A DNA stretch of 55,658 bases from contig JAQVSV010000006.1 of the NCBI GenBank assembly GCA_028700325.1, positions 1 to 55,658 on the forward strand, in the 5' to 3' direction. Source of the DNA: Elusimicrobiaceae bacterium (GTDB taxonomy: Bacteria; Elusimicrobiota; Elusimicrobia; Elusimicrobiales; Elusimicrobiaceae). Within the stretch, counting starts at the first letter, position 1, and each line of letters starts with the position of its first letter. The position numbers were made by a program, and so were the translations under genes. This document shows, one piece after another, positions 18,482-22,708 of this stretch. The notes beneath the pieces were generated by a model that saw only the letters and a program-made list of their open reading frames with translations, did no database searches and was not told the DNA's origin.

Positions 18482-19687
18482 ATGACCAATACCAGGAAAC
18501 TGGCTGTTATCGTGTTCGGCGGCCTGATTGCCGCCTGCCTCTATCACTGCGCGCTGATGGGGGCTTTGCTGCATCGCGACTACCCCCAAAACACTTTTCT
18601 GTTCAACAACGACTGGCTTTTTTCCGATTTCTACGAAACCGTCAAACTGGCCTCCACCGGCAATCCCTATTCCGGCGCGGCGGTGCTCAACAGCGTATAT
18701 CCGCCGGCGCTTAACCTGGCGGCGCTGCTGCTTGCCAGACAGCCGTTCCTGCGCCCGAGCGACTTATACCTGCTGCTGGCCGCGCTGGTTATCGGCGCGG
18801 CCGGCTGGCTGGTTTTCAGGGAAAAGGATCCCGCGAAAACCGCGCTTAATGTGCTGGGCGGCGCGTTCGCGTCGTACCCGGTTATTTACTTGCTGCACCG
18901 CGGCAATCTGGAGCTGATTGCGTTTCCGTGCCTGTTCGCCGGCATATATTTTTACGACAAAAAGAAATACGCCGCCGCCGCGCTGGGCATAGGGCTGGCG
19001 GCGGCCTGCAAGGTTTATCCGGCGATATTTTTCTTTTTATTCGTGACGGACAGAAAAATGCGCTGGGCAGCGCTGTCCGCCGCGATCTGCGCGGCGGTCA
19101 CGGTCGCGGGCTTCATGTATTTCCATAACGGGCTCGCGCAAAACATCTCCGCCATGCTCGCCACGATGCGCGCGTATAACGCGGAATATGTAGGCAAGGG
19201 GTACGGACTGGTGTTCGGGCACAGCCTCTACGGCGCGCTTCAGGCGGTGCGGTGCTGGATTCTGGGCATAGAACCTGTTTACTCAAGCCCGCGGCTGATC
19301 AAATTCTATCCGTATATCGCGGCGGCGCTGGGGCTTTTCACGCTGCGGCGGGTGTGGCTGGAAAAAGAACTGTGGAAAAAAGTCGCGCTGCTTACGGCGG
19401 CAATGCTGGCGCTGCCGTATGTGTCGGCGGATTACCGGCTGATCAGCCTGTTCGCGCCATTGTACCTGTATTTCAAAGCGGGCTATAACGGCAGGTACGC
19501 TTGCGCATATCTGTGGATTTTCGGGCTGCTGCTTGTTCCGAAAAACTTTTTATATTTCTGCGAACCGGAAGTGTCTTTGTCCGCCGCGCTTAATCCGCTG
19601 CTGCTGGGCGCGCTGGCCGCGCTTATCGTGCGAGAACAGATTGCCGGGCGGAAAGCAACCGTCCCGGACGGCGCGCCGCCGTCGTGA
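18482..19687 (+). CDS. GT87-like membrane glycosyltransferase (DUF2029)
   Basis: A 401-residue polytopic protein with about ten hydrophobic segments. 'FSDFYETVKLASTGNPY' in the first loop (the acidic residue typical of GT-C enzymes), 'YLLHRGNLELIAFP' and 'GLAAACKVYPAIFF' match polyprenol-phosphate-mannose-type GT87 transferases. It would move a sugar from a lipid carrier to an envelope acceptor on the outer face of the inner membrane. A TACAAT box ends 14 bases before the ATG and there is no ribosome site, so the leader is very short. Neighbouring genes give no hint of the acceptor. Confidence 0.72.
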   Translation: MTNTRKLAVIVFGGLIAACLYHCALMGALLHRDYPQNTFLFNNDWLFSDFYETVKLASTGNPYSGAAVLNSVYPPALNLAALLLARQPFLRPSDLYLLLAALVIGAAGWLVFREKDPAKTALNVLGGAFASYPVIYLLHRGNLELIAFPCLFAGIYFYDKKKYAAAALGIGLAAACKVYPAIFFFLFVTDRKMRWAALSAAICAAVTVAGFMYFHNGLAQNISAMLATMRAYNAEYVGKGYGLVFGHSLYGALQAVRCWILGIEPVYSSPRLIKFYPYIAAALGLFTLRRVWLEKELWKKVALLTAAMLALPYVSADYRLISLFAPLYLYFKAGYNGRYACAYLWIFGLLLVPKNFLYFCEPEVSLSAALNPLLLGALAALIVREQIAGRKATVPDGAPPS

Positions 19688-19690
19688 AAT

Positions 19691-19718
19691 TTGATTTGGC
19701 GGAGATTTGTACTATAAT
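19691..19718 (+). promoter_or_regulatory. Promoter upstream of the ATP-grasp operon
   Basis: TTGATT (19691-19696), 16 bases, TATAAT (19713-19718), placed directly after the GT87-like gene. The nearest downstream recognisable gene starts at 20095, so the transcript would carry a leader of about 370 bases. Confidence 0.65.
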
Positions 19719-20094
19719 ATCATCAGACGCCGGAAATCATGGCGCGCAGCAAATTTCTTTCTCATAAGGAAGAAACACAAAGACTATGGTTCTCGAACCT
19801 AAGGCTGAGCCGGACGGAAGTGGCAGTAAAAATCAAGCAGCACCGGAGCGGACGCAACAGACTCTCCAAAACAGCAGTGCCGCAGCAAACCTTCACATCG
19901 GGATGAACGACTGCGCTGAAAACGCCGGCCGTATATATCCCTTCTTTAAGCGGTGCGTTCGCGCCGCGCGAAAACCTGCCGTAATAAAAGGGAAAGTTTC
20001 GGGCCCGCAATTTTTAATCCGCGGCGCTTCGCCCATGCCCGCATGGCTTGAGCGGTAACCGATACCAATACCGAACGGACAATAAAAAACATCA
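19719..20094 (+). other. 376-bp leader region before the ATP-grasp operon
   Basis: No recognised gene. Two overlapping open frames follow the promoter: one from ATG 19739 (55 codons, MARSKFLSHKEETQRLW...) and one from ATG 19786 (90 codons, MVLEPKAEPDGSG...WLER, ending at 20058). Neither has a well-spaced ribosome site (AAGGA stands 15 bases before 19786), a membrane segment or a family match that I recognise. A small hairpin CCATG/CATGG lies near 20033-20046. It may be an untranslated leader or encode a small peptide. Confidence 0.35.
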
Positions 20095-21177
20095 ATGACC
20101 GAAAAACAGCTGTGCCTTGAAGAAGCACCCGGTAAAGACTCCGCCGAACCTCCATCCTCCGGCGGGCAGAAAACACTTAACACCATAGGGCTGGCCTTCA
20201 ACCTGCGCAAGGAAGGCTGCGTGAACGAAGCGTACGAGGAATACGACGATATTCACACGATAGAAAGCCTCAGGCGCGAAATAGAGAAATACGGCTACGA
20301 GGTCCTCCTGTACGAACAGGATGATGATTTTCAGGCGCGGCTTCGCGAGCGGCGGCCTGATCTGATGATTAACATAGCCGAAGGGATCGGCACCGGCCGA
20401 AGCCGCGAGTCGCAGGTGCCCTGCCTGCTGGAAAGCATGGGGATTGCGTACAGCGGATCCGACCCGGTGGCGCTGGGCATAACGCTGGACAAGTATGTCA
20501 CGTCCGCGCTGCTCGATCACGCGAAAATCCCGGTTCCGGCGATGCATCTGGTCAGCGCCGCCGAAGATCTCGCCGGCTTGCCGCGGATTTTCCGCGACGG
20601 GCGGCGTTACATTGTAAAGCCGCGCTGGGAAGGCTCCTCGAAAGGCGTGCACGACAATTCCGTGGTGGATAATTTCGCGGATCTCAAGGCGCGCGCCAAA
20701 GACGTATTGAAAAAACACAGCCAGCCGGCGGTTATCGAAGAATTCATGCCGGGCGACGAAATCACCGCCGGGATCTGCGGCAATAACCGGCCGGAACTGC
20801 TCGGCATGATGAAAATCGAACCCACAGTCAGGGAAAAGGATTATTTCCTCTATTCAATCGAGTACAAACGAGAATGGGAAACTAAAATCGTCTACCGGCG
20901 GCAGGACACGCTCGGCCGGAAAGTGCGCCAGGCCGTTGAGAAATACGCGCTCGCGGCGTTCCGCTGCCTGGAACTGCGGGACATGGCGCGGATTGATTTC
21001 CGGCTCGACAGCAAAGGCGTTCCTCATATAATAGACGTCAATCCGCTGCCCGGCATGTCGCCCGAGTACAGCGATCTGCCCATCCTGGTGCGCCTTAACG
21101 GCGGCACCTATACCCAGCTGTTCGAGCGGTTTCTCAGAACCGCAATCACCCGGCACGGCTTCGCCGTGAAATTCTAA
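20095..21177 (+). CDS. D-Ala-D-Ala ligase-like ATP-grasp enzyme (360 aa)
   Basis: C-terminal two thirds have the ATP-grasp ligase core: 'YIVKPRWEGSSKGVHD' (ATP-binding lysine and Ser-rich loop), 'VIEEFMPGDEITAGICG', and 'ARIDFRLDSKG...IIDVNPLPGMSPEYSDLP' with metal-binding D and N. The N-terminal domain begins 'IGLAFNLRKEGCVNEAYEEY' and lacks the GGxSxEHEVS motif of true Ddl, so it is probably not the cell-wall ligase. The family links a carboxylate to an amine through an acyl phosphate. It is followed by a second ATP-grasp gene after one base and then a GNAT gene. The start has only a weak ribosome site and could lie a few codons later. Confidence 0.82.
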   Translation: MTEKQLCLEEAPGKDSAEPPSSGGQKTLNTIGLAFNLRKEGCVNEAYEEYDDIHTIESLRREIEKYGYEVLLYEQDDDFQARLRERRPDLMINIAEGIGTGRSRESQVPCLLESMGIAYSGSDPVALGITLDKYVTSALLDHAKIPVPAMHLVSAAEDLAGLPRIFRDGRRYIVKPRWEGSSKGVHDNSVVDNFADLKARAKDVLKKHSQPAVIEEFMPGDEITAGICGNNRPELLGMMKIEPTVREKDYFLYSIEYKREWETKIVYRRQDTLGRKVRQAVEKYALAAFRCLELRDMARIDFRLDSKGVPHIIDVNPLPGMSPEYSDLPILVRLNGGTYTQLFERFLRTAITRHGFAVKF

Positions 21178-21178
21178 A

Positions 21179-22195
21179 ATGCAGACAACAACCCCCACCG
21201 GCGTTTCACCCGCCGGCAGAAACATCGTCATCGCCTACGCTTACGAAAAGACCCAGCGGGAGGACGTGAAAGCCTGCGCGACCTGCTGCAGGCTGCTTTA
21301 CAAGGAACTGGCCTCGATGGGCTTTAAAACGCGCCGGATGAAAGTGTCCGACAGGAATCTGACCCGGCCGCACGAACTGCGCAAACGCCTCAGCCGGGAC
21401 AACCCGCTGTGCATTTTCAACCTGTTCGAGGGATTCTCCTACAACACCAAAACGGAATCCGTTTTTTCCAGAATTCTGGAAAGCGCTAAAATTCCGTTCA
21501 CCGGCAACAGCACCAGCGCGCTGGAACTGTGCCTGGACAAACAGGCGGTCAAGGAACGGCTCGCCCTGCACGGCGTAAAGGTGCCGGCGGGCGTGCTGGC
21601 GAAATCGCCGGAGGACGTGGAAAACGCGGGCCTGCGGCTGCCTGCGTTCATCAAACCCTGCTACGAAGACGCGAGCGTGGGAATCGGCAAAGACTCGCTG
21701 GTCAGCACGAGGGAGGAACTGCTTGCCACCGTGCGGAACCGGCTGGCGGCCTTTCCGTCCGGCGTGATAGCGGAGGAGTTCATACCCGGCGTGGAATACA
21801 CCGTCGGGCTGATCGGCACGCCGCCGTACGAGGTGATAGGGATATCATCGCTCCAGTACAATCCCGCCGCCGGGAACGAACTGCGGTTCCTGCATTACGA
21901 ATCGAAGTGGGACACGGAATCGGAATCCTTCCGCATGCTCATGCCGCAGGTGCGGCCGCTGCCGCCCGAAATCAAGGCGGAGCTTGAAGATATCGCCATC
22001 CGTGCGGGCAAAGCGGTCGGGTGCAATGGGTATTTCCGCGTTGACGTGCGCGAACGCAACGGGGAGTACTATGTGCTTGACATCAATCCGAACCCCGATA
22101 TAAATTCCGACAGCGGCTTCATAAAACAGGCCCGCAAAAGCGGCTACACTTACGGGCAGGTGCTGACCAAGATCATAGCGGCGGCCACATGCTGA
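21179..22195 (+). CDS. Second ATP-grasp ligase, Ddl/RimK-related (338 aa)
   Basis: A different ATP-grasp branch from its neighbour: 'CIFNLFEGFSYNTKTESVFS' in the N-terminal domain, 'FIKPCYEDASVGIGKDSLV' where the usual GSS loop is EDAS, 'EEFIPGVEYTVGLIG', and 'FRVDVRERNG..YVLDINPNPDINSDSGF' with the metal-binding D and N. Short N-terminal part contains a CATCCRLLYKEL segment with two adjacent-type cysteines. It starts one base after the first ligase stop and overlaps the GNAT gene by seven bases, so the three are one translation-coupled unit. Product unknown; peptide or amino-acid amide bond formation is expected from the family. Confidence 0.8.
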   Translation: MQTTTPTGVSPAGRNIVIAYAYEKTQREDVKACATCCRLLYKELASMGFKTRRMKVSDRNLTRPHELRKRLSRDNPLCIFNLFEGFSYNTKTESVFSRILESAKIPFTGNSTSALELCLDKQAVKERLALHGVKVPAGVLAKSPEDVENAGLRLPAFIKPCYEDASVGIGKDSLVSTREELLATVRNRLAAFPSGVIAEEFIPGVEYTVGLIGTPPYEVIGISSLQYNPAAGNELRFLHYESKWDTESESFRMLMPQVRPLPPEIKAELEDIAIRAGKAVGCNGYFRVDVRERNGEYYVLDINPNPDINSDSGFIKQARKSGYTYGQVLTKIIAAATC

Positions 22196-22656
22196 AACAG
22201 ACGGTCAATGCGGCGGAGTTCGCGGCAACCGCGGAAGGGACCGGCGTTTTCGCGCGCCATGAAATTGATGTTCTGAAAGAAATCCTGCGCGACTGCGAAC
22301 ACGATCCCGCCAATACTTACGTTATTGACGCGGAGCGCGACGGCTCCGCGCTGCGCGGATTCTCTATTTACGGCAGAACCCCCATGACCGATTTCGGCTG
22401 GGATGTCTACTGGATAGTCGTGGCGAAAAACCAGCAGGGCCGAGGTTTGGGAAAACAGCTGCTGGACCGCGCCGAACAGGCCATTATGGCGCATGACAAA
22501 CGCGCGGTGTTGAGAATTGAAACCTCATCGCTGCCGGAATACGCGCCCGCGCGGAAGCTGTACCTGAAATGCGGCTACGAAAAAACCGGCACGATCCCCG
22601 ACTTCTACAAGGCGGGCGACTCGCTGATGCTGTTTCACAAACTCATTTCACGCTGA
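22189..22656 (+). CDS. GNAT family N-acetyltransferase (155 aa)
   Basis: A single GNAT domain: 'VYWIVVAKNQQGRGLGKQLL' supplies strand 4 and the acetyl-CoA pyrophosphate loop (QQGRGLG), followed by 'LPEYAPARKLYLKCGYEKTG' near the C-terminus. It transfers an acyl group from acyl-CoA to an amine. Overlap with the preceding ATP-grasp gene argues that it modifies the same product. An analogy with established knowledge is N-acetylglutaminylglutamine amide synthesis, where a GNAT domain and an ATP-grasp domain act together; that link is my inference. Confidence 0.85.
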   Translation: MLKQTVNAAEFAATAEGTGVFARHEIDVLKEILRDCEHDPANTYVIDAERDGSALRGFSIYGRTPMTDFGWDVYWIVVAKNQQGRGLGKQLLDRAEQAIMAHDKRAVLRIETSSLPEYAPARKLYLKCGYEKTGTIPDFYKAGDSLMLFHKLISR

Positions 22657-22671
22657 CACATATCAGGCGGC

Positions 22672-22708
22672 AAAGCGCGCCGGCGGATTCTATCCGGCGG
22701 CGCGCTTT
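22672..22708 (+). terminator. Possible terminator after the ATP-grasp/GNAT operon
   Basis: A 16-bp stem with one mismatch (AAAGCGCGCCGGCGGA / TCCGGCGGCGCGCTTT) around a 5-base loop, 15 bases past the GNAT stop. The T run is only three long. Confidence 0.5.

What the first reader, a model, noticed from the sequence alone, without database searches (positions are those of the whole stretch)
19691..22656. Uncharacterised operon: two different ATP-grasp ligases plus a GNAT acetyltransferase
Three translationally coupled genes (gaps of +1 and -7 bases) join a Ddl-like ATP-grasp enzyme without the Ddl N-terminal motif, a second ATP-grasp enzyme with an EDAS loop in place of GSS, and an acetyltransferase. 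No peptidoglycan gene is adjacent. ATP-grasp pairs of this kind with a GNAT are a natural way to build an N-acylated di- or tripeptide; the precedent is N-acetylglutaminylglutamine amide synthesis. The product here is unknown, so this is the strongest candidate in the window for an undescribed small-molecule pathway.
Basis: partly seen in the sequence, partly recalled or inferred. Interest (0 to 1): 0.6.

Follow-up and report, generated by a model that had tools for sequence, protein, structure and literature searches.

The report
Twin ligase operon for β-lysine peptides
Three neighbouring genes, two peptide-bond-forming enzymes and an acetylating enzyme, belong to an operon found in several bacterial phyla that usually also carries the enzyme making the unusual amino acid β-lysine, so they probably build an acetylated β-lysine peptide whose identity is still unknown.

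Summary
The three coupled genes are real: P1 20095-21177, P2 21179-22195, P3 22189-22656. P1 and P2 are Ddl-fold ATP-grasp ligases with intact catalytic residues; neither is the cell's Ddl, an ordinary gene elsewhere in the genome. P3 is a GNAT.

The decisive new fact is a fourth partner. Among the 80 best relatives of P1 in public genomes, a lysine-2,3-aminomutase-type gene (KamA) lies within 1.5 kb in 40; in 57 Ddl-type control loci, in none. The full set KamA-P1-P2-GNAT recurs in Omnitrophota, Auribacterota and Chloroflexota; KamA is fused to P1 in two Omnitrophota. All 50 KamAs examined keep the two aspartates that bind lysine's ε-amine. The window operon has no KamA of its own, but the genome encodes one in a lysine-fermentation cluster.

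Best reading: synthesis of a β-lysine-containing, N-acetylated small peptide, combining the logic of the abl osmolyte operon with NAGGN-like ligation. Product, order of steps and role remain inferred. A conserved EEPPG/EEPPS tail on operon KamAs, with a similar tail on window P1, is unexplained.

The parts
19691..19718 (+). promoter-like site (TTGATT, 16 nt, TATAAT) before a leader of about 370 nt
   Evidence: consensus match 10 of 12; not evidence of function
20095..21177 (+). P1: Ddl-fold ATP-grasp ligase, the core ligase of the aminomutase-linked family
   Evidence: PF07478 1.6e-26; 53% identity to the P1 half of a KamA::P1 fusion in Omnitrophota; AlphaFold2 pLDDT 92.5; best folds Ddl
20095..20154 (+). 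disordered N-terminal tail of P1 (EEAPG...AEPPS), resembling the EEPPG/EEPPS tails of operon KamAs
   Evidence: mean pLDDT 48-49 over residues 1-20; resemblance to tails of L191, L192, L194 reached by 13, 7 and 4 of 1000 shuffles, not significant against L179, L180, L181, L184, L195
21179..22195 (+). P2: second Ddl-fold ATP-grasp ligase with EDAS loop
   Evidence: PF07478 3.7e-22; 38-42% identity to P2 of the six nearest operons; pLDDT 91.6; best folds Ddl
22189..22656 (+). P3: GNAT acetyltransferase
   Evidence: PF13508 7.2e-11, PF00583 1.2e-10; 38-43% identity to GNATs of the five nearest operons that have one; nearest solved chain 2r7h, 'Putative D-alanine N-acetyltransferase of GNAT family'
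22672..22708 (+). 17-nt near-perfect inverted repeat (one mismatch, loop of 3) after P3, possible transcript end
   Evidence: read directly from the sequence; no run of T follows, and the terminator scan did not list it

Best explanation
The operon encodes two non-ribosomal peptide ligases and an acetyltransferase of a pathway that turns β-lysine into a small N-acetylated peptide. L-lysine is isomerised to β-lysine by a radical-SAM lysine 2,3-aminomutase (KamA). In many relatives KamA sits in the operon; in this genome β-lysine must come from the KamA of the lysine-fermentation cluster. P1 joins β-lysine to a partner amino acid by acyl-phosphate chemistry of the Ddl type, P2 makes a second amide bond, and P3 acetylates a free amine, most simply one that would otherwise leave the product cationic. 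A compatible solute or a reversible, polyamine-like role is the most likely use. Shown: gene order, family membership, catalytic residues, aminomutase linkage, lysine-type aminomutase active site. Inferred: β-lysine as substrate of P1, the other building blocks, order of steps, site of acetylation, physiological role.
For: KamA within 1.5 kb of P1 relatives in 40 of 80 loci against 0 of 57 Ddl-type control loci; in the same-strand run in 39 of 80. KamA fused in frame to P1 in L179 (743 aa, domains by Pfam) and L180 (724 aa, by similarity). Full KamA-P1-P2-GNAT order in Omnitrophota, Auribacterota and Chloroflexota, and in a bin labelled Deltaproteobacteria. 50 of 50 KamAs keep the residues aligned to D293 and D330 of solved lysine 2,3-aminomutase 2a5h, and the lysine after the GGGG stretch (PLP lysine, recalled); one (L210) passes NCBIfam's lysine 2,3-aminomutase cut-off, 527.5 against 525.4. 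In the window's phylum, 18 of 22 genomes with a close P1 relative (E 2e-37 or better, cut-off chosen after seeing the list) have a KamA at 1e-60, against 50 of 318 others, Fisher 1.3e-10. The host's only KamA passes the same cut-off (604.7) and lies among CoA-transferase, Kce-like and Kdd-like genes (the last names are my reading). P1 and P2 keep the ATP-grasp lysines, the Ddl R255/D257 counterparts and the metal-ligand D/E-x-N (numbering recalled). Five relatives carry a deacetylase-domain gene next to the set (L183, L191, L192, L197 in two pieces, L199), fused to another GNAT domain in the three scanned, which would fit reversible acetylation.
Against: The window operon has no KamA and no relic of one was found in 19400-20200. 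P3 matched neither the β-lysine acetyltransferase AblB nor any NAGGN family in NCBIfam (8 families, all shown). 25 of 80 P1 relatives have none of the tracked partners in their run. The double ATP-grasp form in G183, G185, G186 and G188 goes with no KamA at 1e-60 in those genomes, so part of the family uses something else. No lysine riboswitch was found in the window stretch or in 12 relatives. No substrate has been measured.
Confidence: 0.6

Rival explanations
1. The ligases of this window now use ordinary α-lysine or another diamino acid, because the operon lost its aminomutase; the rest of the pathway (two amide bonds plus acetylation) is unchanged.
For: No KamA in the window operon; P1 relatives without KamA exist (25 of 80 with no tracked partner in the run). 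A plasmid relative of P1 in Thioflavicoccus sits with diaminobutyrate transaminase and SbnA (2,3-diaminopropionate) genes, though a KamA gene is next door there too.
Against: The genome still has a lysine-type KamA, and P1's nearest relatives are the KamA::P1 fusions (89/93). L184, the other near relative with no KamA in its run, also has a KamA of the ordinary type about 4 kb upstream.
Confidence: 0.2
2. The enzymes modify a protein or carrier peptide rather than free amino acids: β-lysine is ligated to a glutamate side chain, possibly of the EEPPG/EEPPS tail itself.
For: EEPPG/S motif in 15 of 23 KamA tails with a P2 gene nearby against 5 of 27 others; 0.03 of 23 expected after shuffling. 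Window P1 has a similar disordered tail. ATP-grasp enzymes acting on glutamates of carrier proteins are known (LysX/LysW, recalled, no call).
Against: P1 and P2 are nearest by fold to Ddl, a free amino acid ligase. Many KamA-P1 sets lack the motif (none in the ten Omnitrophota P1-P1'-KamA loci). A docking motif explains the tails as well.
Confidence: 0.08
3. P1 and P2 are divergent D-Ala-D-Ala-type ligases for peptidoglycan or its modification, and P3 is a D-amino-acid N-acetyltransferase.
For: Fold and profile similarity to Ddl; the solved relative of P3 is named a putative D-alanine N-acetyltransferase.
Against: A separate classic Ddl is encoded; scores of P1 and P2 are far below the Ddl and Van cut-offs shown; relatives sit with an aminomutase far more often than Ddl genes do.
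Confidence: 0.07

Closest known systems
abl operon (AblA lysine 2,3-aminomutase plus AblB β-lysine acetyltransferase), Nε-acetyl-β-lysine osmolyte
   Same: A lysine-type aminomutase in one operon with a GNAT, in many relatives of the window operon
   Different: Two ATP-grasp ligases stand between them, P3 does not match AblB, and the window itself lacks the aminomutase gene
NAGGN operon (asnO-ngg plus peptidase), N-acetylglutaminylglutamine amide osmolyte
   Same: Peptide ligation joined to GNAT acetylation, with a hydrolase nearby in some relatives
   Different: No amidotransferase beside the genes, ligases are Ddl-fold and separate proteins, and the substrate clue is lysine, not glutamine
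D-alanine--D-alanine ligase (Ddl) family
   Same: Fold, ATP-binding lysines, catalytic arginine/aspartate and metal ligands
   Different: N-terminal motif, gene neighbourhood; profile scores far below cut-off
EpmA/EpmB β-lysylation of elongation factor P
   Same: β-lysine made by a KamA-family enzyme and then attached by an ATP-dependent enzyme
   Different: EpmA is a lysyl-tRNA synthetase relative (recalled), not ATP-grasp; the three operon KamAs of the full type that were scanned (L179, L181, L191) score 233-252 against the EpmB cut-off of 369, and 435-471 with the lysine 2,3-aminomutase model

Membership tests
D-alanine--D-alanine ligase | score above a curated Ddl/Van cut-off | tested here: not met
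   P1 best 133 against 243, P2 best 120.5 against 243
D-alanine--D-alanine ligase | ATP-grasp fold with catalytic and metal-binding residues | tested here: met
   alignments; Foldseek's 50 listed matches are all Ddl or the related D-Ala-D-lactate ligase; residue roles recalled from Ddl literature
D-alanine--D-alanine ligase | is the cell's only Ddl | tested here: not met
   separate classic ddl in G000:C106
abl operon (Nε-acetyl-β-lysine) | lysine 2,3-aminomutase in the operon | tested here: not met
   absent in the window; present in the run in 39 of 80 relatives; host has one elsewhere
abl operon (Nε-acetyl-β-lysine) | GNAT is an AblB | tested here: not met
   no AblB model among the 8 NCBIfam families matched by P3
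NAGGN biosynthesis | ATP-grasp/GNAT synthetase of the Ngg family | tested here: inconclusive
   none among families shown for P1 and P2 (25 of 35 and 25 of 40 shown) nor for P3 (all 8 shown)
NAGGN biosynthesis | AsnO-type amidotransferase next to it | tested here: not met
   upstream GT87-like and hydroxylamine reductase genes, downstream MFS/acyltransferase/AMP-binding gene
operon family KamA-P1-P2-GNAT (described here) | P1, P2 and GNAT homologues in this order | tested here: met
operon family KamA-P1-P2-GNAT (described here) | product contains β-lysine | not testable with these tools
   needs biochemistry

The most novel reading that the evidence does not exclude
The EEPPG/EEPPS tails are not docking motifs but carriers: the ATP-grasp ligases build the β-lysine peptide on glutamates of a disordered tail carried by the aminomutase or, where that gene was lost, by the ligase itself, so that the tail had to be kept. 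This would be a self-tethered assembly line for β-amino-acid peptides that needs neither tRNA nor an NRPS.
Probability: 0.07. Interest if true: 0.85.

Novelty: new variant of a known kind. Interest (0 to 1): 0.62.

Why it matters
β-Lysine is known as an osmolyte precursor, a fermentation intermediate and the modification of EF-P, plus antibiotic side chains. An operon found in several mostly uncultivated phyla that feeds it into paired peptide ligases and an acetyltransferase would be a new route to β-amino-acid peptides, made with two ATP-grasp enzymes and no NRPS. It is directly testable: four genes, a cheap substrate, a predicted mass class. If the product is a compatible solute it could also help explain stress tolerance in groups that cannot be cultivated. 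I found no description in print with the searches, which cover only open-licence papers; the listings were read, not the papers, except as stated.

Tried and rejected
KamA relic upstream of P1: a profile of 17 operon KamAs against six frames of 19400-20200 gave nothing. The 90-aa ORF 19786-20058 has a codon composition unlike its neighbours (0.62/0.51/0.56) and no relative in held loci except the window's own copies. Viral contigs: no relative of P1. Plasmids: P1 and P2 relatives at 32.3% identity or less in the 25 listed rows each; of eight plasmid records with a P3 relative I looked at five, and none has the ligases beside it, so P3's family is broad and P3 alone says little. Lysine riboswitch or other RNA element: none relevant. 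NifA-controlled genes in Paraburkholderia (passages of PMC8305402): an ATP-grasp gene and a D-Ala-D-Ala ligase gene are listed far apart, not this operon. Shared start MTEKQLC of P1 and the genome's Ddl: 18 of 21 bases agree and the flanks do not, judged coincidence. I considered calling the tail of P1 a proven remnant of a KamA::P1 fusion; the tree favours it (89/93) but tail alignments to L179 and L180 are not significant, so it stays a suggestion.

My ORF caller favours ORFs with hits; the first version failed. Some contigs end close to the gene, so misses include cut-offs. The 57 Ddl-type control loci come from two searches (plus L003), include the same gene more than once, and hold only 2.5-3.9 kb each. 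Only some of the loci and stretches were given to later calls: the P1 tree holds 32 proteins chosen by me from 80 loci. Related genomes are not independent, so Fisher values overstate certainty. Iyer and co-workers 2009 on amidoligases (recalled) could not be read; it may mention related operons. The 2003 abl paper was also not held; abl facts come from passages of PMC1224877 and PMC3543383, NAGGN facts from passages of PMC8070244.
Full report
What is in the sequence. Three plus-strand genes, P1 (20095-21177), P2 (21179-22195) and P3 (22189-22656), are separated by +1 and -7 bases. The reported start, 19691, is a promoter-like match, not a gene start. P1 and P2 both match Dala_Dala_lig_C and P3 matches GNAT models. 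P1 and P2 score far under the curated Ddl and Van cut-offs (133 and 120.5 at best against 243). AlphaFold2 models of both are confident (pLDDT 92.5 and 91.6) and nearest to solved Ddls, at 16-24% identity in the listed rows. Residues 1-20 of P1 form a disordered tail. Upstream lie a GT87-like gene and a hydroxylamine reductase gene; downstream is a convergent MFS/acyltransferase/AMP-binding gene. Nothing here ties these to the pathway.

They are not the cell's Ddl. The genome's ordinary ddl, with its N-terminal EHDIS and GSS loop, lies on another contig (G000:C106; L003 1183-2262). In 60 relatives searched with P1, hits were at 23-30% identity, the level of Ddl-type genes. In 340 genomes of the phylum, P1 relatives at 1e-18 appear in 71 and P3 at 1e-9 in 1, the window's own genome, so the set P1-P2-P3 was found only here.

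The missing partner. An alignment headed by P1 was scanned against 84,980 species genomes; 547 relatives were found and the best 80 kept. The six nearest (47-53% identity) are four Omnitrophota, one Auribacterota and one Synergistetes bin. All six have a P2-type gene directly after P1 and five have the GNAT after that. Directly before P1, in five of six, stands a radical-SAM gene of lysine-2,3-aminomutase type (LAM_C domain in those scanned); in L179 and L180 it is fused in frame to P1. Over all 80 loci, KamA is in the held stretch in 44 and in the same-strand run in 39; P2-type genes in 31 and 29; GNAT in 20 and 19. KamA lies within 1.5 kb in 40 of 80, against 0 of 57 Ddl-type control loci. 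In the window's phylum, 18 of 22 genomes with a close P1 relative have a KamA, against 50 of 318 others (cut-off chosen afterwards; relatedness not corrected).

What the aminomutase is. Aligned to solved lysine 2,3-aminomutase 2a5h (361 bits), the operon KamAs keep Asp293 and Asp330, which bind the ε-amine of lysine (role recalled), and the PLP lysine (recalled), in 50 of 50. Their best NCBIfam model is lysine 2,3-aminomutase in all five operon cases scanned, one above cut-off and four below it. So the likely substrate is lysine and the product β-lysine.

The window lacks this gene. Its genome has one KamA, above the lysine 2,3-aminomutase cut-off, in a cluster with CoA-transferase subunits, a Kce-like and a Kdd-like gene, that is, lysine fermentation (the last names are my reading of the proteins). 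β-Lysine should therefore be available. L184 looks the same: no KamA in its run, an ordinary one about 4 kb upstream. In a tree of 32 P1-type proteins the window groups with L179 and L180, the KamA::P1 fusions (89/93), inside a seven-row clade with full support. Loss of the KamA part from such a fusion is a natural guess, but no relic was found.

Variants. Besides KamA-P1-P2-GNAT, some with MarC or a deacetylase gene, there is P1-P1'-KamA in ten Omnitrophota loci, P1 with KamA alone (eight runs, and six genomes of the window's phylum with KamA in the held stretch), and long proteins with two ATP-grasp regions, several beside an S58 peptidase. S58 includes β-peptidyl aminopeptidases (recalled), which would suit a β-peptide, but four genomes of this type in the phylum have no KamA at 1e-60. 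The commonest minimum is P1 with KamA, so I take P1 as the ligase that handles β-lysine.

An unexplained tail. KamAs with a P2 gene nearby often begin with a disordered-looking stretch carrying EEPPG or EEPPS, sometimes twice: 15 of 23, against 5 of 27 KamAs without P2, all five from loci labelled planctomycete or dehalococcoid; shuffled tails give 0.03 of 23 on average. Among proteins called in these loci, the motif otherwise occurred in one unrelated ORF. Window P1 begins with LCLEEAPGKDSAEPPSSGG after MTEKQ. Its resemblance to three of eight tails tested is reached by 4-13 of 1000 shuffles, to the other five not significantly. Docking, carrier function and relic all remain open.

Mechanism, with what is shown. 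Shown by sequence: three tightly coupled genes; two intact ATP-grasp active sites; conserved partnership with a lysine-type aminomutase. Inferred: β-lysine enters P1, two amide bonds are made, and P3 acetylates an amine. The nearest working models are the abl operon, where aminomutase and acetyltransferase make Nε-acetyl-β-lysine for salt tolerance (passages of PMC1224877; PMC3543383), and NAGGN, where ligation plus acetylation makes a neutral dipeptide osmolyte (passages of PMC8070244). By the tests made, the window is not an abl operon and lacks the NAGGN amidotransferase. The deacetylase genes beside five relatives would allow recycling.

Verdict. The substrate clue is new. I rate it a new variant of a known kind, widespread and directly testable, with product and purpose unproven.

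Noticed in passing
   Followed up: partly
L144 7258-9432 (minus): An ATP-grasp region of this family appears fused to a peptidase-like C-terminal half (my reading; not scanned).
   Followed up: no
L115, L116, L117, L213, L217, L231, L238, L251, L255, L256: P1-family proteins, mostly with two ATP-grasp regions, have an S58 (DmpA-like) peptidase gene next to or near them, suggesting an unusual peptide that is made and cleaved.
   Followed up: partly
L078 4533-10014 (Thioflavicoccus mobilis plasmid pTHIMO01): A P1-like ATP-grasp gene follows diaminobutyrate transaminase, SbnA-type and ornithine cyclodeaminase-like genes, with a KamA gene convergent next door: possibly another diamino acid peptide pathway.
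   Followed up: no
window 20095-20115 and L003 1183-1203: P1 and the genome's true Ddl both begin MTEKQLC; DNA agrees at 18 of 21 bases but flanks differ, probably coincidence.
   Followed up: yes
window 19719-20094: An unusually long (about 370 nt) stretch between the promoter-like site and P1 holds a 90-codon ORF with an AAGGAAG before it but a codon composition unlike its neighbours; no RNA family matched.
   Followed up: partly
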